The notes under the pieces: model-generated | Database searches by the model: none | Told to the model about the DNA's origin: nothing | Seen by the model: the letters and a program-made list of their open reading frames with translations, nothing else | Part shown: positions 12,673 through 27,328 of the stretch, in pieces | Position numbering within the stretch: position 1 is the stretch's first letter | How the letters are laid out: every line of letters starts with the position of its first letter | Made by a program: the position numbers and the translations under genes | NCBI GenBank assembly: GCA_002255985.1 | Contig: NKIR01000013.1 | Location: forward strand, 1 to 64,000 | Length of the DNA: 64,000 nt | Reading direction: 5' to 3' | Source of the DNA: Sphingomonadaceae bacterium PASS1 | GTDB lineage: Bacteria > Pseudomonadota > Alphaproteobacteria > Sphingomonadales > Sphingomonadaceae

Positions 12673-14604
12673 TTAGTTGGCTTTGAGTATCGATACATCG
12701 GCCGAGGGAAGGGTTCTTCGGCCTAGCAGTAAATCCCCAGTTACGGTGTCCGGCAAGTGAACCGTTTCTTTGCTATAGTTGAAGATAAATGTCTTATTTC
12801 CAGCCCGACGCAGCCTGAGCCCTTCGGGCAAAGCGTGTGTGGCAAGGCCGGCGTCTTTGGCTGCGCGCGCTAGAACGGCGTGTGCAACTTCTTTGTTGGG
12901 CCAGGCCGACATATAGCGCACTTGCCTATGGCGCCAGCACGCAACCGTGCCGTCCGAAGCAATCATTTCAGGTTCGGCGGCAGTTTCAAGATGTTCCAGC
13001 CATCGCTCAATCTCCCAATCCTTGCCGGGATGTGTCAGGCCTGGACGCAGGCTTTCCACCCTTACGACCTTACCGGGGAACAGCGCTCGCAGGGGGCCGG
13101 GCGGCAGGCCATCGGAAATGGCAAAGTCGGCATCGCGGCTGCCGCTTCGCGGTCCGATTACAATTTGACCAGAAAACCGCTGTAGTTCCGCAACTAGGCA
13201 ATCAGGCACAATCGGCAGGCAAGGCAAGGCCACCAGAGCGTAGCCATCGAGAGGCCTGCCCGGAGGCACGATGTCGATATCGAGGCCCAGTTTTCGCAGT
13301 GCCGAATAGCAAGAAAAGGCGGCCCACAGCGCAGAGACGCCTTTACCTTGTGGTTGGATTTTGGTGACCCAGTCCGCATCATAAGCAAAAATGAGTGCAA
13401 CTTGCTTGGGCGGATCGCCGACTGGCCCGAGCATCGCGATATCACGGGCTGACTGTGCGGCTTCGGCAAGACCAAGGGCTGGTTCACTATCGGGCAGCAA
13501 AAGCCCTGCGTGATGTTGCTCCTGCGCTTGCGGGAACTGACGCCAGCGGAAATAGCTGACCAATTCAGCTCCATGTGCCATAGCCTCCAACGTCCATAGC
13601 CGAACCATGCCAGGCAGCGGGGCGGGATTATGGTTCGCCCAGTTAACGGGGCCAGGCTGCTGTTCCAGCACCGACCAGCGGCCGCTTGGCGTACAACCGC
13701 GGTAGAGATCATGATGGAAAGCAGCTATATCCGGGTGGCCCTGGCGGGCATATGCAAGTTTGTCGGCTTCGGTGAATGGAAAGCTGTCTAGGAAACCAAG
13801 CGGGTAGGAATCCCAGCCGACCACGTCCAAATCGGCCGCGATCGCGTGATGATCGAACTCGGTGAAGAAGCCCATGTAGTTGTGGACAACATCGCGGCCT
13901 GGCGAGAGTTCGCGAAGTATCTCAACCTGGCTGCGGTTGAAGGCCGCCACCTCATCCGAGGCGAAGCGACGGAAGGCCAGCCAGTGTGCTGGATTTGCCT
14001 CAGTCACCGTGAGACCGGGCAAATCGATCTCATCGAAGCTTCTGTACTCCATTGACCAGAAGACATTACCCCACGCGTGATTGAGGTTCATCGCTGTGCC
14101 ATAGCGGACCGCCAGCCATTCCCGGAAAGCCAGCCGCGCGGCGTCGGAAAAGCTTAGCACCGTATCGTGGCAACCATATTCGTTGTCAGTCTGCCAAGCT
14201 ACTACAGCCGGATGCTTGCCATAGCGGTTCGCTACCGCCCGAGTGATCCGTGCTGCTTCAGCGCGATAACCACGATGGCTGAAGCAATAGTGCCGCCGTG
14301 ATCCAAATATGCGAGCGTGTCCATGTTCATTGGTTGCTACCATGTCAGGCATCGCATCTACCAGCCACTTTGGCGGCGTTGCGGTCGGAGTGCCCAGAAT
14401 GACCTCTAGCCCAGCAGCATGGAGCGTTTCAATCGCACGATCGAGCCATCCCCAGTCGAATTGACCCGGATCGGGTTCGATCCTGCTCCATGCAAACTCC
14501 CCGATGCGCACTTGCGAAAGGCCGGTCTCGACCATACGGAGAGCGTCCTCGGCCCAGAGGTTTTCCGGCCAATGTTCGGGATAATAGCAGGTGCCTAATT
14601 TCAT
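12673..14604 (-). CDS. Beta-galactosidase, glycoside hydrolase family 42 (643 aa)
   Basis: Cytoplasmic retaining beta-galactosidase; no signal peptide. The (beta/alpha)8 domain covers about residues 1-370 and opens MKLGTCYYPEHWPENLWAED. The acid/base is Glu142 in WQTDNEYG and the nucleophile Glu314 in WSVLEQQPG, both present. A trimerisation domain (about 380-590, PKQVALIFAYDADW) and a small C-terminal beta domain follow; the length is normal for GH42. I choose ATG 14604 because the family starts there; the in-frame codon at 14640 adds 12 residues. GH42 enzymes act on short galactosides from plant material rather than lactose alone. The gene is divergent from the TetR regulator across a 154-bp intergenic region. 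Confidence 0.95.
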   Translation of the reverse strand: MKLGTCYYPEHWPENLWAEDALRMVETGLSQVRIGEFAWSRIEPDPGQFDWGWLDRAIETLHAAGLEVILGTPTATPPKWLVDAMPDMVATNEHGHARIFGSRRHYCFSHRGYRAEAARITRAVANRYGKHPAVVAWQTDNEYGCHDTVLSFSDAARLAFREWLAVRYGTAMNLNHAWGNVFWSMEYRSFDEIDLPGLTVTEANPAHWLAFRRFASDEVAAFNRSQVEILRELSPGRDVVHNYMGFFTEFDHHAIAADLDVVGWDSYPLGFLDSFPFTEADKLAYARQGHPDIAAFHHDLYRGCTPSGRWSVLEQQPGPVNWANHNPAPLPGMVRLWTLEAMAHGAELVSYFRWRQFPQAQEQHHAGLLLPDSEPALGLAEAAQSARDIAMLGPVGDPPKQVALIFAYDADWVTKIQPQGKGVSALWAAFSCYSALRKLGLDIDIVPPGRPLDGYALVALPCLPIVPDCLVAELQRFSGQIVIGPRSGSRDADFAISDGLPPGPLRALFPGKVVRVESLRPGLTHPGKDWEIERWLEHLETAAEPEMIASDGTVACWRHRQVRYMSAWPNKEVAHAVLARAAKDAGLATHALPEGLRLRRAGNKTFIFNYSKETVHLPDTVTGDLLLGRRTLPSADVSILKAN

Positions 14605-14758
14605 AATCGCCCTATTCAACCATTGCGAGGAAATTGACATCTATCTAACCTTGCCCTTTCTGCTTGTGACGGGCAAACCAGCCGGAACAGGCAAATAACG
14701 ATAAAGGTTCTCGCGATCGGGTTTGCCGGGTGTGAAAATTGTTAAAGGTTGCAACGCG
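14605..14758. promoter_or_regulatory. Divergent promoter region between GH42 and tetR
   Basis: Both genes must be transcribed outward from here, so a TetR operator is expected. The only longer inverted pair I see is ggcaaacc (14672-14679) and ggtttgcc (14720-14727), 40 bp apart. That spacing is too wide for one TetR dimer site but could serve looping. The operator assignment is weak. Confidence 0.4.
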
Positions 14759-15424
14759 ATGCCTGATGCCAAACGAAGTGCTCTGTCGAAGTCCCAGAAA
14801 CGGGTCCGCCTCGCCCCAAGCGAGCGACAGACGTTCATCCTTGATCATGTTGCAGAGATTGTTGCGCGCGATGGTGTTTCGGCCTTGTCGATGGATCGCA
14901 TCGGGCGCGAAGCGGGTATAAGCAAGTCTCTGGTCTACAATTATTTCCCCAATATAACTGATCTGCTGAGGCTTCTTCTGCAACGCGAGTGGAGGCGCTT
15001 GCGGCGACAACAGGTCGAAGCCGCTCAAAAAGCTAATACTTTCGAGGATTTGGTTCGTTCTGTTACACATGTTTACCTCAAATATATTGATGAGCGGGGT
15101 ATGTTGATCGAACGGTTGCAAGCCGAACCCTCAGTCTCTGCTATTCACGACCCCACAGAGTTCGGTCGCGACACCGCCGTTAGCTATCTGGCCGAAATTG
15201 TTGCCGAACATTTCAATTTACCTCCCGATATCGCCAGAGCAGCAACAGACATTAGCTTTGGTTTGCCGGCCGCTGCGGGTGCCTATTTGTTGCAACGCAA
15301 ACTCAGTCGAGAAGCGCTTGAAGACTTAACTGTCACCATGATCCTAGGGACGCTGACTGAGATCAAGCGTGAGCATACAAATCGGCACCAGCCGATCCGG
15401 CGTCAACAACCGGCATCAATCTGA
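14759..15424 (+). CDS. TetR-family transcriptional regulator (221 aa)
   Basis: The N-terminal helix-turn-helix lies at about residues 30-75 (LDHVAEIVARDGVSALSMDR, IGREAGISKSLVYNYFPNIT), the canonical TetR pattern ending in YNYF. The C-terminal ligand domain (about 80-205) includes the LERLQAEPSVSAIHDP-type region. I choose ATG 14759, preceded by AAAGG; the longer frame starts with TTG at 14723. It is divergent from the beta-galactosidase and convergent with the COQ4-family gene, overlapping its end by 9 bp, so it probably regulates the galactoside locus, with a metabolite of the substrate as ligand (inference). Confidence 0.9.
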   Translation: MPDAKRSALSKSQKRVRLAPSERQTFILDHVAEIVARDGVSALSMDRIGREAGISKSLVYNYFPNITDLLRLLLQREWRRLRRQQVEAAQKANTFEDLVRSVTHVYLKYIDERGMLIERLQAEPSVSAIHDPTEFGRDTAVSYLAEIVAEHFNLPPDIARAATDISFGLPAAAGAYLLQRKLSREALEDLTVTMILGTLTEIKREHTNRHQPIRRQQPASI

Positions 15425-16174
15425 GCGCTCAACTGACGGCTTTAGAAGTTCGGGCGTGCGTTTGGGCGGCGTATCCGCGATCGCAACGAGATCGCGCTGC
15501 AACCCAAATTCGGCGCGAATGTCATCCAAAGGTTCACCGAGACGATGCTCAAACTTCACGAACTGGACGCTGCGGGCGCGCCGGCCAAGAGCCCAACCAT
15601 CCGTGATCGCGTCCATCCCCGGCTTGATTAGGTAGGGGTCGACCAAAGTCATATGACTGGTCACAACGGCAATCCACATGGCAGCATAAGGATAGTCCAT
15701 CTGGGCAAGTTGGAATGCCTGAATTGCAAGCTCACCGAGTGGTGTAGCCGGATAGCCGGTCAGGACATGATGAAGATCATGTGTCTGAAAGCCACGTAAC
15801 ACCTTGTAAGCTAATGCCGGAGGCATGCGATCAATTTTACCGCTTTGCAGCAATTCATCATGCCTAGCGTGGTAACCAGCTGCCAAATGTTCAACCAGAT
15901 TGTTATCGACCATGAAGGCGCGGTAAGCATGGCCCAACGTACCTGGACCATAGCTGTCGAGCGAACCAATTCGAAAATCCGGCGCAAGCCATCCTTCCCG
16001 AGCCAGCGGTCCATGGTCCGGGTGATCGAGGATCGCCGCTTCGTACTTCGCAATCACATCAGCCGGAGCTGTTTCCCACCATTCGTTGAACAACCAGTCG
16101 ATCCCGTAGGTGTAGAAATTGTCGATGCTTTTGAGGAATTTTTCTCCGAAACTACGTTCGATCTGTGTCATCAT
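15416..16174 (-). CDS. COQ4-family protein (252 aa)
   Basis: Recognised by the exact COQ4 signature HDxxH-x11-E: His132-Asp133-Leu-His-His136 (FQTHDLHHVLTGYP) and Glu148 (PLGELAIQAF). Eukaryotic COQ4 is needed for coenzyme Q biosynthesis and has been linked to oxidative decarboxylation at ring carbon C1. Here it is not with ubiquinone genes but is the last gene of a catabolic operon (TBDR, esterase, SDR, symporter, VOC, hydrolase, SDR), so it may act on a quinone- or phenol-like substrate (inference). A second ORF-internal ATG gives nearly the same start. It overlaps the convergent tetR end by 9 bp. Confidence 0.85.
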   Translation of the reverse strand: MMTQIERSFGEKFLKSIDNFYTYGIDWLFNEWWETAPADVIAKYEAAILDHPDHGPLAREGWLAPDFRIGSLDSYGPGTLGHAYRAFMVDNNLVEHLAAGYHARHDELLQSGKIDRMPPALAYKVLRGFQTHDLHHVLTGYPATPLGELAIQAFQLAQMDYPYAAMWIAVVTSHMTLVDPYLIKPGMDAITDGWALGRRARSVQFVKFEHRLGEPLDDIRAEFGLQRDLVAIADTPPKRTPELLKPSVERSD

Positions 16175-16192
16175 GTCAGCCTCCTCTTCGGG

Positions 16193-16957
16193 TTACTTGG
16201 CCAAGGTTCCGCCATCGACCGGCACAAGGGCACCAGTCATGAAAGCGGCTGCATCGCTGACCAGAAACGCCAAGGCTTCGGCCACTTCCTCTGGTGTGCC
16301 ATAGCGTGCCATGGGGATACCCTGTGCCAATTGTGGCCGAGCAGCCTCTGGGTTATCGGGCGAAAGGCGGCGCTCGAGTTGGAACATCATTTCGGTTGCC
16401 GTCGGACTAGGGCAGATTGCCAGCACACGCACCCCGTGCGGCGCCAGCGCGATGGCCGCGGACTTGGTCATTCCATTCACCGCATGCTTGCTGGCAGTGT
16501 ACCCAAAGATGTTACCGCTACCGCCAAAGCTCGACACCGAGGATGTGTTGACGATCACACCGCTGCGATTGGTCAGCATGTGATGGCCGACATACTTTAG
16601 CCCCAGAAAGACACCTTTAACGTTGACCGCCATAATCCGGTCAAATTCTTCTTCCGGATAGTCTAGCGCATTGGCTATCGCACCCGATATGCCTGCGTTG
16701 TTGAACAAGATATCAACCCGCTCACCCAGCGTAAGAGCAAGATCGATCGCCCTCTGCCAATCCGCTGCATTCACTACATCGCCGGCTAGACTGGCAACGC
16801 GACCAGCGGACAAGGCGGTACTGAAATCGGCCTCCGGCCGATCGAACGCGACTACGCTGGCACCGCTCGCGCAAAGGCGATGCACGGCCGCAAGGCCAAT
16901 TCCACGGGCAGCCCCGGTGATGATGGCAACGCGGCCCGTAAGAGTTTTTTCGGTCAT
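16193..16957 (-). CDS. Short-chain dehydrogenase/reductase (254 aa)
   Basis: Classical SDR. Rossmann motif TGAARGIG at about residues 14-21, NNAG at about 90, the catalytic Ser in NTSSVSSFGG, and YTASK with catalytic Tyr and Lys near 156-160. The C-terminal PVDGG motif is present. The Asp in VVAFDRPEAD after the second strand favours NAD+ over NADP+. The start at ATG 16957 overlaps the stop of the hydrolase gene (16954) by 4 bp, so the two are translationally coupled. Probably oxidises or reduces an alcohol/ketone of the catabolised compound; substrate unknown. Confidence 0.9.
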   Translation of the reverse strand: MTEKTLTGRVAIITGAARGIGLAAVHRLCASGASVVAFDRPEADFSTALSAGRVASLAGDVVNAADWQRAIDLALTLGERVDILFNNAGISGAIANALDYPEEEFDRIMAVNVKGVFLGLKYVGHHMLTNRSGVIVNTSSVSSFGGSGNIFGYTASKHAVNGMTKSAAIALAPHGVRVLAICPSPTATEMMFQLERRLSPDNPEAARPQLAQGIPMARYGTPEEVAEALAFLVSDAAAFMTGALVPVDGGTLAK

Positions 16958-17895
16958 GCTTTAACTTCCTTCGAAATCGGCCGGATTGGGTGTTGAGCGA
17001 TAAATTTAGCAATCAACGCTGCGCAGCGTTCAGGGGCATCGCGGTGCGGGACATGTCCAGCAGCGGGCAGTCGCGTGAGGATAGCCTCCGGGCAGGCATG
17101 GACGATGGCGTCCGCCATGGCTGGCACAAAAACGGCATCCTGATCACCCCAGATGATCTGGACGGGGCACTTGATGTGGCATTCATCCAGAAAGTCGTTG
17201 CCAAATTCTGCATCGATATCCGGCACATCAAAAGGAGATGCACGATACCAAGCCAACATCGCCTGCCACACACCCTTTTGGGTCCAGGCATGACGATAGG
17301 CCTCGATGTCAGCATCATTCAGCAATCCATGACTATAAGGTTGCGCCAAGAAACGCTCTATCAAAGCATCGACATTGGTTTCATTGAACAGTGCATCTGC
17401 CTCGGCGGAACGCAGCATGGTGATATATTGGGATGCAAGGCGCTGATTGGGGTCATTCCAGATCATTTTTTGCAATACTGCAGGCGGCGGCGCGTTGAGG
17501 ACGGTAAGGCTGGCTGCTTTATGCGGATGCTTTTCCGCAAATGCGAACGCCAAAACGCCACCCCAATCATGTCCACATAGATGCACCATCGACAAATCAA
17601 ACGCATCAATCAATGCCGCGACGTCGTCGATCAAATGCCCCAGCCGGTAGCTTTCATCATCCAGCGGGCGCGAGGTCAAACCATAGCCACGCAGATCCGG
17701 CGCAATCAGCCTGAATTCCGGCGCGAGACGTTCTGCAAGGGGGCGCCATGTGGCAGCGTGGTCGGGAAAGCCGTGCAAAAAGAGAATTGGTTCGCCGCGC
17801 CCCTGTTCCAAGCAATGAAAATCCAGTCCATTGGCCCGAACATTTCGGCTCATAGGGGAAGCGTTGGCAATAGCAGTACCCGAGGTGAAGGACAT
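16954..17895 (-). CDS. Alpha/beta hydrolase, epoxide hydrolase / haloalkane dehalogenase type (313 aa)
   Basis: Oxyanion motif HGFPD near residue 41, then DLRGYG, and the nucleophile in GHDWGG: an aspartate rather than a serine, which is typical of epoxide hydrolases and dehalogenases. The acid comes from the IIWGDQDAVF strand, and the catalytic histidine from AAGHVPHRD. No signal peptide. Start ATG 17895 has GAGG upstream, and 5 bp separate it from the VOC gene stop. Coupled to the SDR by a 4-bp overlap. In this operon it could open an epoxide or cleave an ester or C-C bond of the non-sugar part; exact reaction not assignable. Confidence 0.9.
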   Translation of the reverse strand: MSFTSGTAIANASPMSRNVRANGLDFHCLEQGRGEPILFLHGFPDHAATWRPLAERLAPEFRLIAPDLRGYGLTSRPLDDESYRLGHLIDDVAALIDAFDLSMVHLCGHDWGGVLAFAFAEKHPHKAASLTVLNAPPPAVLQKMIWNDPNQRLASQYITMLRSAEADALFNETNVDALIERFLAQPYSHGLLNDADIEAYRHAWTQKGVWQAMLAWYRASPFDVPDIDAEFGNDFLDECHIKCPVQIIWGDQDAVFVPAMADAIVHACPEAILTRLPAAGHVPHRDAPERCAALIAKFIAQHPIRPISKEVKA

Positions 17896-17900
17896 CGAGG

Positions 17901-18881
17901 TTATGCCTCTGTAGCCGTCGCGGCCAATCGATTGCGATATGCGGTACGCGCAGCATCGACGCTATGGCCATTGGCTTCTTGCAACATTGCAGCGACTGTT
18001 AGCTGCTTATCTAAGCTGGGTTGCAGTACTTCGAAAACATTGCCGTCGGGGTCGCGTCCGAAAAATAGCCGCGCATTTCCGAACATATGGGGCGGCCCGT
18101 GCAATTCGATGCCATGGGCCACTAACCGTGCATAGTCAGCGTCGATATCGTCGCTTTCAAAGCAAATATGGTTCCACCCCGGAGTCGCCAGACTGCGCCT
18201 GTTTCCTGGCAGAGTAGGTGGATGTGCATAGCACCAAAATTCTAGTTCGGCGTTGGCGAGCCGCGACCAAGCGCCCGTGAAACATATGTCTGAAAGTCCA
18301 GCCACATGATCGAATTTAGGACTGGGGCCGAAACTGCCTTGGCGATGGATATCGATTCCGGTGAGCAACGCATAAAAATCAGTCAGCCTGCTGATATCTG
18401 GAGTGACCAGCGCAACGTGCGCAAACCAGGGGCGGCGAGCCTCCTCCGGTGCCCAAGGTGTTCCCTCAAGCTCGAGAAGATTGCCTTCCAGATCACGGAT
18501 ATAGACATAACTGTTGCCCGTTCCCAACCCCGAGGGTCGTGCATGAGAAGTTGCGCCAGCGGCAACCAGTCCATCGTACAACCGGTCGGAAATCTCGCTC
18601 TGCAGGCAGATATGGCGTATTCCTGCTGAATAGACTGCCTTATCTTCCTGATCCATTTCAGGTTTACAGGCATATTCGAACAGTTCCAAACATCCAAGAC
18701 TGCCTTGCAAAAACGCGCCCCGAGCAGAGGCATTATCGAGCTGCAGCATGGCACGATTGTTTGCGTTATCTTCTACGTCAAATCGGTGGGAGAGATTATA
18801 GGCATGCTGTTTGGTATAGAAGTCGATCGCCGCGTCGAGATTGAGCACAGAAAGTCCGACATGATGCAGCCCTGTGATCAT
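17901..18881 (-). CDS. Two-domain VOC protein, extradiol-dioxygenase-like (326 aa)
   Basis: Two VOC modules: about residues 4-125 (TGLHHVGLSVLNLD, LELFEY, IRHICLQ, LLELEG) and about 155-290 (FAHVALVTPDIS, LEFWCY, GWNHICFES, VFEVLQP). Both keep a His-Glu-His-Glu set, so both could bind metal. In classical BphC-type extradiol dioxygenases only the second domain is active, so this may be a diverged relative. Start at ATG 18881 shares one base with the symporter stop (TAATG). An earlier in-frame start would add a basic, unrelated leader. Likely acts on a catechol-like or isomerisable intermediate; inference. Confidence 0.85.
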   Translation of the reverse strand: MITGLHHVGLSVLNLDAAIDFYTKQHAYNLSHRFDVEDNANNRAMLQLDNASARGAFLQGSLGCLELFEYACKPEMDQEDKAVYSAGIRHICLQSEISDRLYDGLVAAGATSHARPSGLGTGNSYVYIRDLEGNLLELEGTPWAPEEARRPWFAHVALVTPDISRLTDFYALLTGIDIHRQGSFGPSPKFDHVAGLSDICFTGAWSRLANAELEFWCYAHPPTLPGNRRSLATPGWNHICFESDDIDADYARLVAHGIELHGPPHMFGNARLFFGRDPDGNVFEVLQPSLDKQLTVAAMLQEANGHSVDAARTAYRNRLAATATEA

Positions 18882-20248
18882 TATTCTTTCACTCCGGAAG
18901 AAGCGACGGCCATTCGAGCGTCGATTTCGGCGCGGATGTCGCGATGGCGCGCCTCTGTCAAAGTATAATGCCACGCCATATAAGCGGCGATCAGCACCAG
19001 AACCGCTGGAATAACACTATAGCTGATCGTCAAGGCTAGCAGCGGTTCGGCTCTGCTCTCACCGGCAGAAACATAACCAATGCCACCAAGAATGAGCAAA
19101 GGCAGACCAGAGCCGGCAGCATATCCCATCTTCTGAACCATGGCCGTCACTGCATAAAACAGTCCCTGTTGGCGATCCAACGTGTCTGCGGTGTCGATAT
19201 CTGCAGTATCAGCGATCATCGCGTGCGGCAGCATAAGCACTGCACCATAGCACGCACCTTTCAGGATAAAGAGGGCGGTAAAGACGTATACCCCGCCCTT
19301 TGGCACAAAGAACATCAACGCATTGGTTGCCGCAACGATGATGAGCGCCAAGGCAAGGGCGCGGTGTTTTTCGATCCGCTTGGCGAGCCAAACCCAACCG
19401 GGCACAACAAGCAGTGCTGCTACGAAATAGAGGAAGTATATGACGCCAATATTAGGGACGCCCACAACATCGCGCGCAAAAAACACCGTGATCGTCTGAC
19501 GGAAAACTTCGCCCACCGTTGCAACAAGCACCAACAAAGTTACCTGCAAGAAAGCGCGGTTGGAGCCAAGCATTTTCATCGCCTTGGTTATGTTGAACGG
19601 GGCTTTGCGGATTGGAGCTTCGGGCTCTGGAACGAAAAAGAAGGCAAGCGCCGCACATAGCGGCAGCAAAGCTATGATAACGACGCTTAACGCCGACATC
19701 ACATCTGCGCTGGTCGTTCCAGGCTGCATTTGTACATAGGCAGGGATGAGTGTCGATGTAATCAGGCCGGCGATGCTGAAGGCCTGTGAAACCGAACTTA
19801 TTCGGGTTCGGACGTGATAGTCTTCGGAAAGCTCGGCTGCCCAGGCATGATAGGGTAGCAATAGCATCGTGTAGCCCAGATAAACGAGCGCGACAGCAGC
19901 AAGGAAATAAACGATATCAATACCCGGCGAGGGCCGGAATAGCAGGTAGACCCCTGCCATCATTGTCAATGATCCAAAAATCAGCCACACCCGTCTGCGA
20001 CCGATTTTGGGGCGCCAGCGATCGGAAATAATTCCTATAATCGGATCGGTAATGAAATCGGATAGGCGTGCTAGGATTAACGAAATCCCGATGAGCTGCA
20101 GAGCCAATTGCATCTGTCCAGAGTAGAGCGGAGCCAGATAGATTGCGATCGGTAGCCCGATCATTCCAAGGGGCAATTGCACAGACCCAAAGGCAAGAAT
20201 TCGCCACAAGCCTATCTGTTGCTCTTCACGACCGGATGCTGATGCCAC
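18881..20248 (-). CDS. GPH-family (MelB-like) sugar:cation symporter (455 aa)
   Basis: Twelve hydrophobic segments with glycoside-pentoside-hexuronide family marks: LSDFITDPIIGIISDRW in helix 2 with the paired Asp residues, followed by KIGRRRVWL, and LLLPYHAWAAELSEDYHVRT in the helix 4-5 loop. Members import melibiose, lactose or glucuronides with Na+ or H+. In this locus it is the obvious inner-membrane importer for the galactoside that GH42 splits. The MFS fold and family are secure; the actual sugar is inferred. It is separated from the SDR upstream by 92 bp and joined to the VOC gene by one base. Confidence 0.9.
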   Translation of the reverse strand: MASASGREEQQIGLWRILAFGSVQLPLGMIGLPIAIYLAPLYSGQMQLALQLIGISLILARLSDFITDPIIGIISDRWRPKIGRRRVWLIFGSLTMMAGVYLLFRPSPGIDIVYFLAAVALVYLGYTMLLLPYHAWAAELSEDYHVRTRISSVSQAFSIAGLITSTLIPAYVQMQPGTTSADVMSALSVVIIALLPLCAALAFFFVPEPEAPIRKAPFNITKAMKMLGSNRAFLQVTLLVLVATVGEVFRQTITVFFARDVVGVPNIGVIYFLYFVAALLVVPGWVWLAKRIEKHRALALALIIVAATNALMFFVPKGGVYVFTALFILKGACYGAVLMLPHAMIADTADIDTADTLDRQQGLFYAVTAMVQKMGYAAGSGLPLLILGGIGYVSAGESRAEPLLALTISYSVIPAVLVLIAAYMAWHYTLTEARHRDIRAEIDARMAVASSGVKE

Positions 20249-20340
20249 TTATACCCCCTTCCAAATTCGACTTTGTAAACCGTTTCTTGAACGATTTGTG
20301 CGATCGCTCCCCTTGAAATCCGATGATGTATCGGGTCCCA

Positions 20341-21117
20341 TCATAAAGGAAAAATCGAATGGCCGCCGTCAAGCACCAGCGCTTGACCGGTCATGAAATT
20401 GCTTTGCTTGGATGCAAGGTAAACCGCGATACCTTCCATGTCTGACAATTGTCCAATCTTGCCGGACGCTGCCCGGCGGCGACACCCGTCTTGAAAGGCT
20501 TTGGGCGTATTCAGTGACATTTCGGTCTCGATGAACCCGGGCAGGATTGCGTTAACCTGTATACCGCTGCGTCCCAGTTCGATTGCAAGTGAACGGACCA
20601 ACCCAGTCACGGCCGACTTGGTCAGGCAGTAGCCAGCGGAATTGGGTAGTCCAAGGAGTGCCGCCACCGAAGACGTAACAATCAACTTGCCCCCCGCTTT
20701 GCGGTTTTGCCAGTGGCGCGTTGCAAGCTGAAACGTGTCTATCACGCTAAGGATATTGAGCTCGTTCGTGTCGAGCCAGGCTTGCCGATCCATATCGACG
20801 AACGAGCCTCTAGCGCCCGCGCCACCTGCGTTGGCAAAACAGCTGTCGATTTTTCCGAAAGCATTAATGGTGCGATCAAATGCCGCAGCGGTAGACGCCG
20901 GGTCAGTCACGTCAGCTTCGAAGCTTTGGGCGTGGCCACCCATCGCAACCAGTTCAGCAACCGCCTCAGCATTCTTGGCTTCGTTTCGTCCCCACACTGC
21001 GATTTGCGCACCTGCCTTGGCTAAGCCTTTTGCCATAGCAAGGCCAAGTCCTCCATTGCCGCCCGTTACCAATGCGACGTGGCCGTTAAGATCGAAAAGA
21101 TTGTGCATATTGTTCAT
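20341..21117 (-). CDS. Short-chain dehydrogenase/reductase (258 aa)
   Basis: Classical SDR: TGGNGGLG Rossmann motif near residue 18, NAGG near 97, catalytic Ser in VTSSVAAL, then YCLTKSAV with catalytic Tyr and Lys, and the C-terminal VLDGG. Different from the SDR at 16193, so the operon carries two steps of this type. The cofactor loop (VWGRNEAKN) with Arg favours NADP+. Its start overlaps the end of the secreted esterase by 4 bp (ATGA). Confidence 0.9.
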   Translation of the reverse strand: MNNMHNLFDLNGHVALVTGGNGGLGLAMAKGLAKAGAQIAVWGRNEAKNAEAVAELVAMGGHAQSFEADVTDPASTAAAFDRTINAFGKIDSCFANAGGAGARGSFVDMDRQAWLDTNELNILSVIDTFQLATRHWQNRKAGGKLIVTSSVAALLGLPNSAGYCLTKSAVTGLVRSLAIELGRSGIQVNAILPGFIETEMSLNTPKAFQDGCRRRAASGKIGQLSDMEGIAVYLASKQSNFMTGQALVLDGGHSIFPL

Positions 21118-22397
21118 TTACCTGCCGATTTGTGATGAAGTTCCAACCCACGCGCCCAACGACGCTGAAATCCACGCCAGTAACCTGGCTGGTCCTTGCC
21201 CGCTGTAATGCCGCCCCATGTCTGACCAAAACTGCTGGGCCACTGACCTTGGTTTGCGAATGGTGTGGGTACTTCGAGATATGTACTTTTACTTTCTTCG
21301 GCCTTCAATTCAAGGTCAAGGAATGCTCCGATGAAATGCGCGTTTATCATTTCAATCCGTTCCTTGCGCCACACAGGGTCGGTAAGGAACTCAATCGTTG
21401 GAAAGTCAGCATCTGATGGGATTGTCACAGGATTTCCTGCAATGTTATGCGCGGCCTCGCGATAAACGAGAAGGTAACGGTCAGTGCCTTGCGCCGCATT
21501 GAAAAGCCGTTTTACCCCGCGCTCGTAATCAACAACATCGTCTTGATCGCCCGCCACAACGAGTAGCGGCATTCGCAGGCTGGCAAGCGCAGAATCCTGC
21601 CAGACCGCTGCGGCTGGCTGTCCACCCCAAGGTGCAAGTACTACCACAGCCTTGATTTTCGATGCCAGGGCGGGATCCGGAATAGGGAGTTGCGCACGCA
21701 TAGCTGGCGATAACTGGGCAAAGGCCGGGGCCGCCGGATCAAGTGCCGCGCCGGCTGTGGTCAAGCTGCCATAGCCGCCCATGGAGAAACCGAGGAGGCC
21801 GATTGCATTCGGATTAATCTTTTCGGCGATCTGTGGTGCCAGTTTTGCACCGAGGATCGCATTCAGCACCGCCCGTTGGTCCAGTGTCCTGTTAATTAGA
21901 ACCCCAGCGAACGAAGCTGCAAATGAAGCAATATCATTAAAAGGCTGGTCCCGGTGATCGAGCGAGGCAACCACATAGCCCCTTGATGCGAGTGTCTCTC
22001 CAAGGCGGCTCATATGTTCCGACCAGCCGCCATAGCCGTGAGACATGATAACCAATGGGAAGGTCTGCCCAGCGATCGGCTTGGCGTCAGCTACGGCGAG
22101 GCCGGTTTCTGCAATTTGGAGTGGCTTTTGGCCAGGCAATGCACGACGATGATTGTAAACCACTCGGGTAGAAGAGCTTCTAGGAACCGCAGGATACCAG
22201 AAGCGGACACCTATGGTGCGATCACCCGACGCAAGATGATCCATCCGCGTGCCGATGCCAAAAGCACCAAGCATTGCCAGTTCAGGCATTTCGGCCGAGT
22301 GGACTGCTGCCGGCTCTATCGGTTGGACTTGCCCTTGCGCCGCACCGGAAGAAATCGCGGCTATTAAGCTTGCAAGGGCTATAATCAGTCGCGGCAT
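21114..22397 (-). CDS. Secreted PAF-acetylhydrolase-like alpha/beta hydrolase (427 aa)
   Basis: A signal peptide (MPRLIIALASLIAAISSGAA) precedes a platelet-activating-factor-acetylhydrolase / dienelactone-hydrolase-like fold: VIMSHGYGGWSEH (oxyanion), GLLGFSMGGYGS with nucleophile Ser in GFSMG, AGDQDDVVDYE (acid) and YREAAHNIAG (His). An esterase working in the periplasm is expected. It lies directly downstream of the TonB receptor, so it may remove acyl groups from the incoming compound before inner-membrane transport (inference). Length and triad suit PAF-AH-like bacterial enzymes. Confidence 0.85.
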   Translation of the reverse strand: MPRLIIALASLIAAISSGAAQGQVQPIEPAAVHSAEMPELAMLGAFGIGTRMDHLASGDRTIGVRFWYPAVPRSSSTRVVYNHRRALPGQKPLQIAETGLAVADAKPIAGQTFPLVIMSHGYGGWSEHMSRLGETLASRGYVVASLDHRDQPFNDIASFAASFAGVLINRTLDQRAVLNAILGAKLAPQIAEKINPNAIGLLGFSMGGYGSLTTAGAALDPAAPAFAQLSPAMRAQLPIPDPALASKIKAVVVLAPWGGQPAAAVWQDSALASLRMPLLVVAGDQDDVVDYERGVKRLFNAAQGTDRYLLVYREAAHNIAGNPVTIPSDADFPTIEFLTDPVWRKERIEMINAHFIGAFLDLELKAEESKSTYLEVPTPFANQGQWPSSFGQTWGGITAGKDQPGYWRGFQRRWARGLELHHKSAGK

Positions 22398-22497
22398 GAT
22401 TGAGATGGTCCCGTTACTGCTTAGTCGGAGCGGCAGGCGAAGGGGTTACCTTCGCCTGCCCTGGCGGGAGGGGTGCCAGTCGATCGATTCAGTCTAC

Positions 22498-24846
22498 TTA
22501 CTGGAAGCCGACGCGAAGGCTTAGACCGAAGGTCCGCGGATCCAATAGGAAAGCACTGCGGAAACTGCCTACCAATTCGGAGTTCACTTCCAGCCAAGTG
22601 ATGCTGTCCTTATTCGCCAGATTCTTGACAAAAGCAGTTACGCTCCAATCCTTCTTGCTGTTAGCAATCTGGACCGAAGCATCGAGTTGGCTCCAACTGC
22701 CAACGCGGTCTGCCGGTACGTTGAATTCGCGCGAGTGAAAGCCGGACTGCGAATAGAAATCGATGCGCGGGCGAACGGCCCAGTCCTCACCTGCATCAAC
22801 CGTGTATTCCGCAGCCAACTTCAGCGTACGGCGCGGCGCATTCGGAAGCTGATTACCTTGGAGCTGGAACAGTGCCTTGCCACGAGACGGGTCAGACGAA
22901 CGAAAATCGCTGCGGACGGTTGCGTTCAGTAGACCAAGATTGGCCTCAAGGCGCAGCGGCTCGATCGGAGTATAGACCAACTCCGCTTCTAAACCTCTCA
23001 CTCGCGACTTGGGAATGTTGGTGTTCGCCACAGCGGTTCCGACAAGGTTGCCGACGATCAGGTTGGAGTATTCGTAATTGAACAATGCCAAGTTCAATCG
23101 GCCCTTGCCATCCATGAACGTATTCTTTGCGCCAAGTTCATAGGCATCGATCACTTCTGATTCGAAAACCGGAATAGTGTTGTTGCCTGGGTTGAACCCA
23201 CCGGATTTAAACCCACGCGAGAAAGACAGATATATGTTGGTATCTTGCGTAAATGAAACCGTTGGCTTCCAGTTTATAACTGCGCGCCCTGTTAACTTGT
23301 CAAAGTCTGCGTCGCCGATGAAATAGGGGCTTAATGCGAAAAGGCCAGAAGCGGTTTCGATATGCTTTTTATCATGAGTGTAGCGCAGTCCACCGGTAAG
23401 CTTGAGGTTCTCTGCAAGATCGACATAGGCTTCACCGAAAACGGCATAAGATTCAACCTGCCCTAAACGCGTGCTGAACTTTGATACAGCGCCGGACAAT
23501 CGGTTTGCTGGGGTCCAGGTGTCGACGTAACCGGAGCCTCGCGAGTTCAGATAAAAGCCACCCAAGATGAAATTAAAGCTCCCATCCAAGCGCGAAGCAA
23601 GGCGCAGCTCTTGGCTAAACTGCTTTTGCGTGCCGCCGCCAGTCTGCGACGTGCGATATTCAGTCGTGGTTACCGGACGACCTGACAACAAGTAGGTCAT
23701 CACGCCGTTGCCATTACCGGCATCAGGGATCACGTGGGTCCCGAACGTACCGGGGTTAAAGGCATTCGGCCGATACCCCTGATCGAAATCACGCTCGCTT
23801 GAGTTGTTGCCGTCACGCAGACCGGTCACCGCCGTGAGCGTAAGGCTGCCTAGCTCTTGATTAATCTCTAGGGTCGCTAGGAAGTCCTCTGCCTTCTGGA
23901 ACGGCTTAACGTCGATCACAACTTCGCGAAGGCTGGTCGGGTTTGCCGAAAAAGTGTTAGGTCGAACTCGCCCTCCAAGAAAGATACTGTCGATTGTGAA
24001 GTTGGTCGTCGGGAACGCTGCTGAAACTGAATTTGGCGAGCAGCCAAAGGCTGAATCAGGTGTGCAGAGCGACTTAGCAGCGTTCTGGCGATCCGAATCT
24101 TCCTTAAAATATGTTAGCGTAAGGTCGACCGTTGTGGAGCTCGAAGGCTCAAAGCGCGTACTAGAACGCAAGGTGAACTGGTTGCGGCCATCAACCATCG
24201 AACCATCGAGTAGGTTTTTTGTATAGCCATCCCGGTTGATGTAATTAGCTGCGAAGCGCTGAGATAGGCCATTAGCCAAGGGAATGTTAATCGCCGCATT
24301 AGTTCTTATGCCACGCGGGTTTTCACCCTGGACCTCTAGATACCCTTCAAAGCGGTCAGTCGGTCGGCGCGTTACAAAGTTGATGGCGCCGCCAGTTGTG
24401 TTCCGACCGAACAAGGTACCCTGCGGTCCGCGCAAAACCTCGATACGCTCCATGTCAAAGAATTCGCCGAAACTGCTACCCGACTGCAGGAACACGCCGT
24501 TTACCAGAACGCCGATGTTGGTGTCTCCCGTACCGCCGTATGACGCGGAGCCGACGCCGCGGATAGTGATGTTGCGGTTAGCTGACAGCGTCACATTGGG
24601 TGCGTTGAACTGAAGATCTTTGCTGTCCTCTACGCGCGCCGCTTCGAGTGCTGCCGCATTTAGTGCGGTTATTGCGATCGGGACATCCTGGACATTTTCG
24701 GCTTTCTTTTGCGCCGTGACAACAATCGTATCGCGATCGTTAGCGGAATCATTGTTTTCGGCCTGCGCGAAAGCCGGTACTGCGAAGGCAACCGACGCGA
24801 TAGCAACCGCAGATGCGCCCATTAACTGAAACTTGATTTTTGACAT
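22498..24846 (-). CDS. TonB-dependent outer membrane receptor (782 aa)
   Basis: A signal peptide ends at about residue 28 (VPAFAQA), followed by the TonB-box-like DTIVVTAQKK and a plug domain (VPIAITALNA, NITIRGVGSASYGG, IEVLRGPQGTLFGRNTTGGA). A 22-strand barrel fills the rest and ends GLSLRVGFQ. Start ATG 24846 has a strong GGGAGG site and opens the signal peptide; the longer frame to 24885 does not. Sphingomonads use such receptors for plant glycans, aromatics and terpenoids as well as iron. Position at the head of the operon with esterase, SDRs and sugar symporter indicates uptake of an organic substrate rather than a siderophore. Confidence 0.95.
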   Translation of the reverse strand: MSKIKFQLMGASAVAIASVAFAVPAFAQAENNDSANDRDTIVVTAQKKAENVQDVPIAITALNAAALEAARVEDSKDLQFNAPNVTLSANRNITIRGVGSASYGGTGDTNIGVLVNGVFLQSGSSFGEFFDMERIEVLRGPQGTLFGRNTTGGAINFVTRRPTDRFEGYLEVQGENPRGIRTNAAINIPLANGLSQRFAANYINRDGYTKNLLDGSMVDGRNQFTLRSSTRFEPSSSTTVDLTLTYFKEDSDRQNAAKSLCTPDSAFGCSPNSVSAAFPTTNFTIDSIFLGGRVRPNTFSANPTSLREVVIDVKPFQKAEDFLATLEINQELGSLTLTAVTGLRDGNNSSERDFDQGYRPNAFNPGTFGTHVIPDAGNGNGVMTYLLSGRPVTTTEYRTSQTGGGTQKQFSQELRLASRLDGSFNFILGGFYLNSRGSGYVDTWTPANRLSGAVSKFSTRLGQVESYAVFGEAYVDLAENLKLTGGLRYTHDKKHIETASGLFALSPYFIGDADFDKLTGRAVINWKPTVSFTQDTNIYLSFSRGFKSGGFNPGNNTIPVFESEVIDAYELGAKNTFMDGKGRLNLALFNYEYSNLIVGNLVGTAVANTNIPKSRVRGLEAELVYTPIEPLRLEANLGLLNATVRSDFRSSDPSRGKALFQLQGNQLPNAPRRTLKLAAEYTVDAGEDWAVRPRIDFYSQSGFHSREFNVPADRVGSWSQLDASVQIANSKKDWSVTAFVKNLANKDSITWLEVNSELVGSFRSAFLLDPRTFGLSLRVGFQ

Positions 24847-25127
24847 GTTTTCCTCCCTTTGCTGTTGACTATATGTGCAATACAAATGGATAATTAGTCA
24901 ATAGTGAAGATATTAAAGCATTTTTCCGCGGAAAATCGTCACTGAATCGTGCCAAATCACGGCATTATTAGTTATATTATCAATAATAATATCAGTCTGA
25001 CGAATGCCTCAGAGATGGAGTTTAGCTGCCTGCGATGCCACCTGCACAGCTAGTGAAGCAGCGAATCGACCCTTGTCGATGCGATAGGATTCAGACACTT
25101 TGCTCATTTGGAGTTTGGGCGGCTGCA
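24847..25127. promoter_or_regulatory. Promoter/operator region of the TonB receptor operon
   Basis: Contains a perfect 14-bp palindrome, ttttccgcggaaaa, at 24922-24935. A 7-bp inverted pair ttgacta (24865-24871) / tagtcaa (24895-24901) lies closer to the gene. An AT-rich inverted pair attatta (24964-24970) / taataat (24984-24990) lies toward galK. The 14-bp palindrome is a good operator candidate for a dimeric repressor. None of these recurs near GH42 or galT. Confidence 0.5.
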
Positions 25128-26297
25128 TTAGATAGGCAGCAGACAGGCGCCGGCAGACGGCCTAGCTACGATGCCCAACTGAGGACGCATGCCTTTTGCA
25201 TGCCAGAATGCGCCTAGTGCGCGCTTAACTGCGTCCATCTTGTTGAATGGAAGAACCGCAACGACGCATCCGCCGAAGCCACCACCCGTCATCCTCGCAC
25301 CGCCTTCGTTACCTATCGCCAAGTTGAGACAATCGACGAGCGCATCGACCGCTGACACACTGACCTCGAAGTCGTTCTTGAGAGAGTGATGCGAGGCGCG
25401 CATTGCATTACCAAGAGCAACCAAGTCACCTTGCGCGATTGCGCGCGCTGCATCGACGGTTCGCACATTTTCCGTCAAAACATGGCGCGCGAGACGGTAG
25501 ACTTTGTCGTCGAGTTCAGAGCGCTTTGCTTCCAGTCGCTGCGGATCGAGATCGCGCAGCGCTGAAACGCCAAAATGCGCTGCCGCGCTGGCGCATTGGG
25601 CCCGTCGCTCGTTGTACGCACTCTCAGCTAGTTCTCGCACGACGCCGGATTGCACAATCAGGATGCATGCATCTGCGGGGAAGTGCACTGGCTCAACCGC
25701 AAGCGAACGGCAATCGAGGAGCAAAGCGCTGTCCTGCTGCCCAAATACGGAAGCGATTTGGTCCATTAAGCCACAAGCGCATCCAACGAAATGATGCTCG
25801 GCCCATTGTGCTACCTTGGCCAAAGCGCGGCGGTCCGGTGCTTGCTCGCCAGCTAATGCAGTGAGCCCCAAGCCCAATGCGACACCAAGTGAGGCGGAAG
25901 AAGAAAGGCCTGTTCCTTGAGGAACATTTCCGGAAATAGCGAGGTACGCGCCTCCAACAGGTAGTCCGAACTTCAGCAATCCTGCGGTTGCGCCACGCAA
26001 ATGGTTTTGCCAGTGTCCCGCCAACATTGGAACAATTGGGGCATCAATCGCGAACTCACACTTCTCTTCCTGAAGGTCGACTGCGTGAGCAGCAATCAGG
26101 TTATCAGCCCGCGGCGCTAAGGCGACTACGGTGCCGTACTCCAGTGCACAGGGCAGTGCGAAGCCATCGTTATAATCCGTATGATCTCCGATCAGATTAA
26201 CCCGACCCGGCGCGAATGCAACGACTGTTGGCTCGCGGTGATAAGCTTGTCGAAATGTCTTTATAGTATGTTGAGCTAGTGCTTCGAGGGGGGTCAT
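25128..26297 (-). CDS. galK: Galactokinase (389 aa)
   Basis: Phosphorylates alpha-D-galactose with ATP, second step of the Leloir pathway. The GHMP-kinase signature is clear: PGRVNLIGDHTDYNDGFALP near residue 30, the phosphate loop GNVPQGTGLSSSASLGVALG near 127, and GGARMTGGGFGGCVVAVLP near the C-terminus. Length typical. Its start overlaps galT by 4 bp (ATGA), so it is translated from the galT-galK transcript. Galactose released by the GH42 beta-galactosidase in the same locus is the natural source. No galE or galM is seen nearby. Confidence 0.95.
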   Translation of the reverse strand: MTPLEALAQHTIKTFRQAYHREPTVVAFAPGRVNLIGDHTDYNDGFALPCALEYGTVVALAPRADNLIAAHAVDLQEEKCEFAIDAPIVPMLAGHWQNHLRGATAGLLKFGLPVGGAYLAISGNVPQGTGLSSSASLGVALGLGLTALAGEQAPDRRALAKVAQWAEHHFVGCACGLMDQIASVFGQQDSALLLDCRSLAVEPVHFPADACILIVQSGVVRELAESAYNERRAQCASAAAHFGVSALRDLDPQRLEAKRSELDDKVYRLARHVLTENVRTVDAARAIAQGDLVALGNAMRASHHSLKNDFEVSVSAVDALVDCLNLAIGNEGGARMTGGGFGGCVVAVLPFNKMDAVKRALGAFWHAKGMRPQLGIVARPSAGACLLPI

Positions 26298-27328
26298 TGG
26301 GCGTCTCTCAGGCTGTAATGTGTTAGCGATACACGGCGAAGTCGTTCTGCTGCCTGTTCAGGCGTCAGATCGCGTTGCGCTTCGGCGAGCATTTCATAGC
26401 CGACCATGAATTTCCGGACTGTCGCCGAACGCAGCAAGGGCGGATAGAAATGCGCATGCAGAATCCAGTGACTGTGATCTCCTGGGAGATAAGGGGCGCC
26501 GTGCCAGCCCATCGAATAGGGAAATGGACAACCAAACAGATTGTCATACCGGGCCGTTAGCTCGCGCAGGACATCGGCTAGTCCGTCGCGCTGGGCAGCG
26601 TTCAGATGCTCTATGCGCTGCACCGAGAACCGCGGCATCAATAGGGTTTCGAATGGCCACACCGCCCACCACGGTACGATCACAAGCCAGTCTGGCGTTT
26701 CGATCACCACACGCGGTCCGCCCGCTTCCTGAGCGGCCACCTCCGTCAGCAAGCTATGTCCGGTTTCGGCAAAGTAGGCGCGCTGTCGCTCGTCCTCAAT
26801 TGCAGGCTCATCAGGAACGTGGCTGCTAGCCCATAGCTGGCCATGAGGGTGCGGATTGGAACAGCCCATCGCGGCCCCTTTGTTCTCGAATAGCTGGACC
26901 CAGGTGTATTGAGTGCCCAGCTCACTTGATTGCGCTGCCCAGCAATCAATCACGCAGCGGACCTGCTCCTTTGAAAGCTGCGGCAAAGTCAGCGAATGAT
27001 TGGGAGAGAAGCAAATTACGCGGCATTCTCCGCTGACGACTTCGGCACGAAACAAGTCTTGAGCCTCGATGTCAGCGTTGCTTCCGAGGAGCAACGCCGG
27101 AAAATCATTTTGGAACGCCCATGGACCTTCATAATTCGGATTGGTTGCGCCATTCGCCCGTTTGTTGCCAGGGCAGAGATAGCAATCCGCATCATGCACC
27201 TGTAGGTCTGGCGCTGCCTGCGGTTCTATCTGGCCAAGCCAGGGACGTTGTGTTCGGTGGGGCGATACCAGGACCCAACGGCCCGTCAGGGGGTTTTGGC
27301 GGCGATGCACCAGATCTGAAAAATCCAT
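26294..27328 (-). CDS. galT: Galactose-1-phosphate uridylyltransferase (344 aa)
   Basis: Exchanges UMP between UDP-glucose and galactose-1-phosphate. The active-site motif GCSNPHPHGQLW (nucleophilic His in HPH) is present, with the zinc-binding pattern from CYLCPGN and the late HSHWILHAHFYPP-type region. Length is normal for class I GalT. First gene of the galT-galK pair and slightly separated from the rest of the locus. With galK it converts galactose to glucose-1-phosphate if a GalE is supplied from elsewhere in the genome. Confidence 0.95.
   Translation of the reverse strand: MDFSDLVHRRQNPLTGRWVLVSPHRTQRPWLGQIEPQAAPDLQVHDADCYLCPGNKRANGATNPNYEGPWAFQNDFPALLLGSNADIEAQDLFRAEVVSGECRVICFSPNHSLTLPQLSKEQVRCVIDCWAAQSSELGTQYTWVQLFENKGAAMGCSNPHPHGQLWASSHVPDEPAIEDERQRAYFAETGHSLLTEVAAQEAGGPRVVIETPDWLVIVPWWAVWPFETLLMPRFSVQRIEHLNAAQRDGLADVLRELTARYDNLFGCPFPYSMGWHGAPYLPGDHSHWILHAHFYPPLLRSATVRKFMVGYEMLAEAQRDLTPEQAAERLRRVSLTHYSLRDAQ

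What the first reader, a model, noticed from the sequence alone, without database searches (positions are those of the whole stretch)
12673..27328. Galactoside locus that also carries aglycone-type enzymes
A full galactoside route is present (TonB receptor, GPH symporter, GH42, GalK, GalT, TetR regulator). Between its parts lies a tight chain of overlapping genes not expected in sugar catabolism: secreted esterase, two SDRs, two-domain VOC protein, epoxide-hydrolase-like enzyme and a COQ4-family protein. The overlaps (21114-21117, 18881, 16954-16957) show one transcription unit. The simplest reading is degradation of a galactosylated lipid, phenol or quinone-like natural product in which sugar and aglycone are both used. 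I know of no described pathway with this gene set.
Basis: partly seen in the sequence, partly recalled or inferred. Interest (0 to 1): 0.7.

Follow-up and report, generated by a model that had tools for sequence, protein, structure and literature searches.

The report
Aglycone-degradation module beside galactose genes
A sphingomonad bacterium carries a conserved, apparently undescribed set of genes that seems to break down the non-sugar part of some natural compound, joined here to galactose-using genes but found elsewhere without them.

Summary
The gene content is confirmed; the single-unit reading is only partly right. The locus has three pieces: a core chain (TonB receptor, esterase, SDR2, GPH symporter, two-domain VOC protein, epoxide-hydrolase-type enzyme, SDR1, COQ4-family protein) with its own 42-bp palindromic promoter block, unique in the genome, and a convergent TetR gene; galT-galK upstream of that block; and GH42 beyond TetR. 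In relatives the core is stable and the sugar part varies: GH42+galK/galT, GH42+GH36, GH36, GH3+sulfatase, or none.

Related clusters take two forms. With a cytoplasmic VOC protein, SDR1 is present (13 of 13 loci) and no PQQ dehydrogenase. With an export-type VOC protein, SDR1 and GPH are absent and a PQQ dehydrogenase is present (14 of 14; in 14 further stretches SDR1 0, GPH 0, PQQ 11). So alcohol oxidation, VOC and epoxide-hydrolase-type steps look like one pathway run in either compartment. The conserved VOC site looks glyoxalase-like (2 His, 2 Glu), unlike BphC-type ring-cleaving dioxygenases. Best reading: catabolism of an oxygenated, ester-bearing, probably non-aromatic aglycone, joined more than once to galactoside use. 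The substrate is unknown; ten literature searches found no described pathway.

The parts
12673..14640 (-). GH42 beta-galactosidase, no signal-like N-terminus; one of two GH42 genes found in the genome
   Evidence: Pfam GH42 467 bits; 1kwg best PDB match, 767 bits; paralogue at G000:C13, 48%
14723..15424 (+). TetR regulator, convergent with COQ4L, divergent from GH42
   Evidence: PF00440; same position in relatives
15416..16174 (-). COQ4-family protein (COQ4L) with HD-xx-H-x11-E motif
   Evidence: PF05019 53.9 bits; motif 12 of 12; other Coq4-family genes on G000 contigs C2 and C10
16193..16957 (-). SDR1, classical dehydrogenase
   Evidence: PF13561; S-Y-K 14 of 14; absent from export-form clusters
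16954..17895 (-). epoxide-hydrolase-type alpha/beta hydrolase (ABH)
   Evidence: best PDB match soluble epoxide hydrolase 4o08, 169 bits; Asp110, Tyr157, Tyr217, Asp253, His281 in 20 of 20
17901..18881 (-). two-domain VOC protein (VOC2) with a glyoxalase I-like 2His-2Glu site
   Evidence: PF00903; model pLDDT 91; Foldseek; H90/E137/H155/E214 in 28 of 28 and 14 of 15 further proteins
18881..20248 (-). GPH-type symporter
   Evidence: PF13347 252 bits; TIGR00792 178 bits, below its cut-off
20341..21117 (-). SDR2, present in both forms of the cluster
   Evidence: PF13561; S-Y-K 21 of 21
21114..22397 (-). esterase (EST) with signal-like N-terminus; PAF-acetylhydrolase / ferulic acid esterase / cutinase fold
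   Evidence: PDB 5yae 43 bits; Foldseek on a pLDDT 67 model; S205/D286/H317 in 10 of 10
22432..22460 (.). hairpin between TonB receptor and esterase, not listed as terminator-like
22498..24846 (-). TonB-dependent receptor (likely ATG start at 24846)
   Evidence: PF00593, PF07715; start
24863..24904 (-). 42-bp palindromic promoter/operator-like block before the receptor gene
   Evidence: aligned in W, L043, L044, L046, L049, L050, L068, partial in L051; one site in the genome; not found in L036, L053, L063, L064, L066
25128..26297 (-). GalK galactokinase; one of two found in the genome
   Evidence: PF10509; paralogue G000:C26, 48%
26294..27328 (-). GalT
   Evidence: PF01087, PF02744

Best explanation
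The locus is a portable catabolic module for the non-sugar part of a natural product, joined here to a dedicated galactoside branch. Shown by sequence comparison: a conserved receptor-to-COQ4L chain; a GLO1-like VOC site; an epoxide-hydrolase catalytic set; SDR1 and PQQ dehydrogenases excluding each other according to where the VOC protein lies; interchangeable sugar genes. Inferred: the receptor and the esterase take up and trim an ester-bearing molecule; the GPH symporter brings it into the cytoplasm; GH42 removes beta-galactose, which GalK and GalT process; SDR1 oxidises an alcohol of the remainder to a carbonyl; VOC2 isomerises or lyses that product; ABH opens an epoxide; SDR2 and COQ4L complete the conversion, COQ4L perhaps as a metal-dependent decarboxylase. 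In other sphingomonads the alcohol-oxidation, VOC and ABH steps are done outside the cytoplasm with a PQQ dehydrogenase in place of SDR1. The aglycone is more likely an oxygenated lipid or terpenoid than an aromatic ring.
For: 12-gene order conserved between genera. Core genes remain when GH42 is a 146-aa remnant (L044) or absent (L043, L048, L051). Sugar genes vary: GH42+GH36 in L036, GH36 in L114, GH3+sulfatase in L053, GH42+galK/galT in L116 and L117. Partition: SDR1 in 13 of 13 loci with cytoplasmic VOC and 0 of 14 with export-type VOC; in 14 stretches looked at afterwards SDR1 0, GPH 0, PQQ 11. ABH also begins with an export or membrane segment in the PQQ loci. Active-site residues conserved. 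Operator-like block unique in the genome. VOC2 model matches maize GLO1 and PcpA globally (TM about 0.6-0.7) but BphC/HPPD types only at about 0.3. Alkenal-reductase-type MDR, GST, AKR and PhyH genes in the L063-L066 type.
Against: No substrate is identified. In L117 VOC and ABH look exported while GH42 has no signal, so sugar removal and the other steps need not act on one molecule. GH42-galK pairs occur without the module. GH42 lies within 20 kb of VOC2 in 5 of 24 genomes having both, but that includes the index genome and one added because it was known; without these two it is 3 of 22 (p 0.003 under random placement), without the orthologous G020 2 of 21 (p 0.03). Three of the 14 further export-type stretches have VOC without PQQ or other module genes. 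Window VOC2 and close relatives keep a second site (H7/E66/H238/E284) that could serve a PcpA-like dioxygenase. Export was judged by hydropathy and eye only. Loci share ancestry.
Confidence: 0.47

Rival explanations
1. Galactolipid/oxylipin reading: the substrate is a mono- or digalactosyl diacylglycerol of algae, cyanobacteria or plants with oxygenated acyl chains. EST is a galactolipase, GH42 and GH36 remove beta- and alpha-galactose, and ABH, SDRs, VOC and in some loci enone reductase, GST and AKR process oxylipin-type chains.
For: EST model matches lipoprotein-associated PLA2; GH36 and GH42 stand side by side in L036; thiolase beside the core in L051 and acyl-CoA dehydrogenase in L036; record titles name a pond, a bloom and S. 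cyanobacteriorum.
Against: The EST model is of low confidence (pLDDT 67) and ferulic acid esterase and PETase folds match nearly as well. The core occurs without galactosidase. No lipid was tested. Two searches for this reading gave no relevant paper.
Confidence: 0.17
2. Aromatic aglycone: COQ4L decarboxylates a hydroxybenzoate-type acid and VOC2 cleaves the resulting hydroquinone or catechol (PcpA/LinE-like), as the first reader's phenol or quinone option implies.
For: Animal COQ4 is reported as a Zn-dependent decarboxylase in PMC7615680 (passages) and COQ4L keeps that motif. VOC2 model matches PcpA 4huz at TM 0.60 and 3oaj, titled putative dioxygenase, at 0.59-0.62; site H7/E66/H238/E284 is intact in the window protein.
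Against: That site decays across the family while the 2His-2Glu site holds in 28 of 28 and 14 of 15. ABH has an Asp nucleophile, whereas meta-cleavage hydrolases use Ser (recalled). No ring hydroxylase was seen in the locus.
Confidence: 0.15
3. Two unrelated loci side by side: a galactoside operon and an independent catabolic module that happen to be neighbours.
For: Both groups occur apart; GH42 and galT-galK are outside the core chain; leaving out the index genome and known cases, co-location is only modestly above chance.
Against: Joined in G000/G020, G127, G181 and G236 with different gene orders; GH42 and GalK here are additional to paralogues elsewhere in the genome.
Confidence: 0.21

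Closest known systems
Saponin catabolism genes of Sphingobium sp. RC1 (PMC10653915; passages seen)
   Same: Sphingomonad that hydrolyses the sugars of a glycoside and also starts to oxidise the aglycone
   Different: GH3, GH39 and GH106 enzymes and steroid dehydrogenases; the terms GH42 and galactosid do not occur in the main text
COQ4 of coenzyme Q biosynthesis (PMC7615680; passages seen)
   Same: Family and HD-xx-H-x11-E metal motif
   Different: COQ4L is one of three Coq4-family genes found in this genome and sits in a catabolic chain; no link to Q synthesis was seen
Soluble epoxide hydrolases (PDB 4o08, 4inz)
   Same: Asp nucleophile, two cap tyrosines, His and acid (roles recalled)
   Different: Activity and substrate unknown; export-type versions in PQQ-type clusters
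Maize two-domain glyoxalase I (PDB 5d7z, 6bnx)
   Same: Overall fold; a 2His-2Glu set placed, by strand order, between the middle modules
   Different: 16-17% identity by Foldseek; export-type forms exist; glutathione use untested
Membrane-bound PQQ dehydrogenases, glucose/quinate/shikimate family (TIGR03074)
   Same: Relatives stand in for SDR1 in some export-form clusters, 792 and 797 bits against a cut-off of 833
   Different: Not in the window; substrate unknown

Membership tests
GH42 beta-galactosidase | GH42 catalytic and trimerisation domains above Pfam cut-off | tested here: met
   467.5 and 87.6 bits
GH42 beta-galactosidase | catalytic glutamates aligned with a solved structure | not tested
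   no residue check was made
COQ4 family | HD-xx-H-x11-E metal motif | tested here: met
   12 of 12 sequences
COQ4 family | role in coenzyme Q synthesis | not testable with these tools
   two other Coq4-family genes in the genome make it less likely
alpha/beta epoxide hydrolase | Asp nucleophile, two cap Tyr, His, acid | tested here: met
   20 of 20; 4o08 alignment
alpha/beta epoxide hydrolase | epoxide-opening activity | not testable with these tools
   needs enzyme assay
Type I extradiol dioxygenase (BphC/HPPD architecture) | domain arrangement and conserved 2His-1Glu in the C-terminal domain | tested here: not met
   TM about 0.3; H238/E284 not conserved among homologues
PcpA/LinE-type hydroquinone dioxygenase | 2His-1Glu site across modules 1 and 4 (assignment recalled) | tested here: inconclusive
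   fold matches 4huz, TM 0.60; site intact in the window protein but decays in homologues
Glyoxalase I type | two-domain fold with 2His-2Glu set | tested here: met
   fold, residues; the geometry of the site was not measured
Glyoxalase I type | glutathione-dependent isomerase activity | not testable with these tools
   needs enzyme assay
GPH symporter | MFS_2 above Pfam cut-off; TIGR00792 cut-off | tested here: inconclusive
   Pfam 252.5 over 27; TIGR00792 177.9 under 231.35
Leloir pathway | GalK and GalT | tested here: met
Leloir pathway | GalE and GalM | not tested
   not searched for

The most novel reading that the evidence does not exclude
A previously unknown pathway by which sphingomonads, perhaps living with phytoplankton, dismantle an oxygenated lipid or terpenoid glycoside, with one reaction series built in two versions: a cytoplasmic version (GPH importer + SDR1) and a periplasmic version (PQQ dehydrogenase + exported VOC and epoxide-hydrolase-type enzymes). 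It would include a COQ4-family enzyme recruited for catabolism, with the glycosidase swapped to match the sugar.
Probability: 0.3. Interest if true: 0.75.

Novelty: new variant of a known kind. Interest (0 to 1): 0.5.

Why it matters
If true, it gives Sphingomonadales a catabolic pathway that exists in two cellular compartments, and a catabolic role for the COQ4 family, which is otherwise known to me from coenzyme Q synthesis. The swap of a cytoplasmic NAD-type dehydrogenase for a quinoprotein outside the cytoplasm gives a direct, testable handle on what the VOC and epoxide-hydrolase-type steps do. Some record titles name a pond, a bloom and a cyanobacteria-named species, so the substrate may be a phytoplankton product; that is a guess.

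Tried and rejected
Steroidal glycoalkaloid degradation was considered because the inner sugar of tomatine is galactose (recalled). The RC1 paper has no GH42 in its main text and I saw no steroid enzymes in the locus. Ubiquinone synthesis for COQ4L was set aside because other Coq4-family genes exist in the genome. Ring-cleaving extradiol dioxygenase of the BphC kind was rejected on fold and residues. Trichothecene-like and carotenoid-epoxide substrates were considered from memory only. A TetR site before GH42 was looked for: no shared 13-base word (up to 2 mismatches) in the window, a partial half-site in L049. The operator block was not found in L036, L053, L055, L063, L064, L066 or L067 and is weak in L048 and L051. 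Plasmid carriage: tblastn of COQ4L gave 7 records, all under 60% identity, six of them cyanobacterial. The ten paper searches (open-licence PMC only) gave no description of this cluster.

Rows dropped before counts: one search lists 36 VOC2 matches in 27 genomes. In some searches I used 31 loci. L042, L044-L047, L049, L050, L065 and L068 were left out as close copies of loci that were used (L050 of L035); L043, also a close copy of the window, was kept, as were L063, L064 and L066, which are near each other. Eight of the nine left-out loci were checked later: SDR1 8 of 8, PQQ 0 of 8. L127 had no called VOC frame; it is export-type with PQQ and no SDR1. My reading-frame caller missed COQ4L in L048 and L051, where tblastn finds it. 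In one search L133 fell under my hydropathy threshold but has a lipoprotein-like N-terminus by eye; I count it as export-type. L141, with 5.3 kb only, has HEQE instead of HEHE. The VOC frame of L049 is broken and that of L047 cut.
Full report
Observation. The region holds three separate pieces. galT-galK overlap each other and end 242 bp before the receptor gene. The receptor-to-COQ4L chain starts at a 42-bp block (24863-24904, minus strand) of the form CTATTGAC...GTCAACA that is a large inverted repeat. It is aligned just before the receptor in the window, L043, L044, L046, L049, L050 and L068 and partly in L051, and has one copy in the window and one in the whole genome as held. A weight matrix did not find it in L036, L053, L063, L064 or L066, so it belongs to the window type only. 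GH42 lies beyond TetR, which is on the other strand. A hairpin stands between receptor and esterase; the terminator scan did not list it and found no more terminator-like sites in the region than shuffles give (15 against a mean of 16.9), so its role is open. GH42 and GalK each have a paralogue of 48% identity, on contigs C13 and C26.

Neighbourhoods. A scan of the species-genome collection with the COQ4L alignment gave 40 named loci. In 16 of the 40, COQ4L stands with SDR1 and VOC2: L042-L051, L053, L063-L066 and L068. Titles name Sphingorhabdus, Blastomonas, Sandarakinorhabdus, Novosphingobium and Parasphingopyxis. Of these 16, GH42 is intact beside TetR in 4 (L042, L045, L049, L050), in three pieces in L046, a 146-aa remnant in L044, cut by the contig end in L068, out of reach in the short contig L047, and absent within the flank in 8. 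In L044 the core genes are 88-96% identical to the window's while the GH42 remnant is 59%, so the sugar part decays while the core stays. In L048 the core lies near genes that I read by eye as recA and mutS of a non-sphingomonad proteobacterium, which suggests transfer of the core alone. Other sugar genes stand beside the module elsewhere: GH3, a sulfatase and a sulfatase-modifying enzyme in L053, GH42 with GH36 in L036 and GH36 in L114. The L063-L066 type has no glycosidase that I recognised in view; it holds an alkenal-reductase-type dehydrogenase, aldo/keto reductase, GST and other oxidoreductase genes.

Is the galactose link more than chance? VOC2 homologues occur in 27 of 396 Sphingomonadales genomes at E <= 1e-40. 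With G236 added, GH42 is found in 24 of 28 such genomes and lies within 20 kb of VOC2 in 5 (G000, G020, G127, G181, G236); galK is found in 18 of 28 and is near in the same 5. Under random placement this has p of about 1e-5 and 2e-6, but G000 is the index case and G236 was added because it was known. Without these two it is 3 of 22 (p 0.003) and 3 of 16 (p 0.001); without G020, whose order is that of the window, 2 of 21 (p 0.03) and 2 of 15 (p 0.015). Gene orders differ among G000/G020, G127, G181 and G236, so joining probably happened more than once. GH42-galK pairs also occur with no module within 20 kb (G142, G343, G509, G518). The two halves are separable units that have been joined; the link is real but weaker than my first count suggested. 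For this I lowered the best explanation from 0.50 to 0.47 and raised the side-by-side rival from 0.18 to 0.21.

Two forms of one module. I fetched 18 stretches around VOC2 homologues, mapped them and clustered the genes of 31 loci. Of these 31, 27 hold a called VOC2 gene. In 13 loci the VOC protein has no signal-like N-terminus; all 13 have SDR1, none has a PQQ dehydrogenase, 12 have a GPH symporter, and the thirteenth (L036) has a sodium/solute symporter instead. In the other 14 loci (15 VOC proteins) the VOC protein has a signal- or lipoprotein-like N-terminus; all 14 have a PQQ gene (a cytochrome c-PQQ fusion or the membrane-bound glucose/quinate/shikimate type), none has SDR1 and none has GPH (families). 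As a plain table this has p 5e-8, after the fact and ignoring kinship. The pattern was then checked on the 15 VOC2 matches that I had not looked at (14 stretches, 15 VOC proteins). All 15 look export-type (L133 by eye), SDR1 is in 0 of 14, GPH in 0 of 14, and PQQ in 11 of 14; the three without PQQ (L134, L141, L142) have VOC but no other module gene, one of them on a 5.3-kb contig. No new cytoplasmic case came up in that check, so it tests only one half. Eight left-out close copies of the window and L063-L066 types have SDR1 in 8 of 8 and PQQ in 0 of 8. ABH in the PQQ loci also begins with an export or membrane segment. TetR, SDR2 and the receptor family are shared by loci of both forms. COQ4L was found in 11 of the 13 cytoplasmic-form loci and in none of the export-form stretches. 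The inference is that SDR1 and the PQQ enzyme do the same job, oxidising an alcohol of the substrate, and that VOC and ABH act on the same molecule in whichever compartment it is. One fact cuts the other way: in L117, a PQQ-form locus with GH42, galK and galT, GH42 has no visible signal while VOC and ABH do. Stretches were 5-20 kb, so genes further away were not seen.

Enzyme chemistry. The VOC2 model is good (pLDDT 91). Foldseek places it with two-domain glyoxalase I of maize (TM 0.60-0.70), a putative dioxygenase 3oaj (0.59-0.62) and PcpA 4huz (0.60-0.61), and only at about 0.3 with BphC/HPPD-type enzymes. H90, E137, H155 and E214 are invariant in 28 of 28 homologues and in 14 of 15 further ones, L141 having HEQE. 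That they form one metal site is inferred from strand order; coordinates could not be measured. The second possible site (H7, E66, H238, E284) is intact in the window but decays in others. ABH has the full epoxide-hydrolase set in 20 of 20 homologues and matches a solved soluble epoxide hydrolase at 169 bits. COQ4L keeps HD-xx-H-x11-E in 12 of 12. In PMC7615680 (passages) COQ4 with this motif is reported as a zinc-dependent decarboxylase in coenzyme Q synthesis. The esterase triad is intact in 10 of 10. Its lower-confidence model (pLDDT 67) resembles PAF acetylhydrolase, a Streptomyces ferulic acid esterase and cutinases.

Interpretation. Shown here: conserved core, interchangeable sugar genes, two compartment forms, active-site conservation. 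Inferred: import by the receptor and the GPH symporter, ester trimming, beta-galactose removal, alcohol oxidation, VOC isomerase or lyase step, epoxide opening, and finishing by SDR2 and COQ4L. I favour an oxygenated, non-aromatic aglycone. A galactolipid with oxygenated acyl chains is the most specific version I can offer, and it is weak. The aromatic route is disfavoured but not excluded.

Literature. Ten searches of the open-licence library returned no paper that I recognised as describing this gene set, judged from titles and abstract starts; most papers of subscription journals are not in that library. I saw passages of PMC10653915 and PMC7615680; other papers were seen as listings with abstract starts.

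Noticed in passing
L117-L131 and L132-L145, e.g. L124:5638-13547: Export-form clusters (TonB receptor, SDR2, TetR, lipoprotein-like VOC, PQQ protein, lipoprotein-like epoxide-hydrolase-type protein) in many Sphingomonadales; function not known to me.
   Followed up: partly
L066:4685-20668 and L067, L079: Sphingorhabdus EL138-type and Kordiimonas-type clusters with COQ4L plus amidohydrolase, alpha/beta hydrolase-flavin reductase fusion, GST, enone-reductase type MDR, AKR and PhyH genes.
   Followed up: partly
L044:11498-16567; L043:11780-13814: The GH42 side of the module is decayed or missing, with a transposase-like pair (L044) or a serine-recombinase-like gene (L043) nearby, read by eye.
   Followed up: no
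L048: Core module beside genes read by eye as recA and mutS of a non-sphingomonad proteobacterium, suggesting horizontal transfer of the core without the galactose genes.
   Followed up: no
L054, L056-L062: COQ4L paralogues, 59-65% identical to the window's, in Sandarakinorhabdus and other Sphingomonadales or Alphaproteobacteria, without SDR1 or VOC2 nearby.
   Followed up: no
L134, L141, L142: Export-type VOC2 homologues standing alone, without the other module genes in the stretch; L141 lacks one of the four conserved site residues.
   Followed up: no
window 11057-11464: A single-domain VOC-like ORF (by eye) just outside the locus; no match to it in the 40 named loci at E 1e-10.
   Followed up: no
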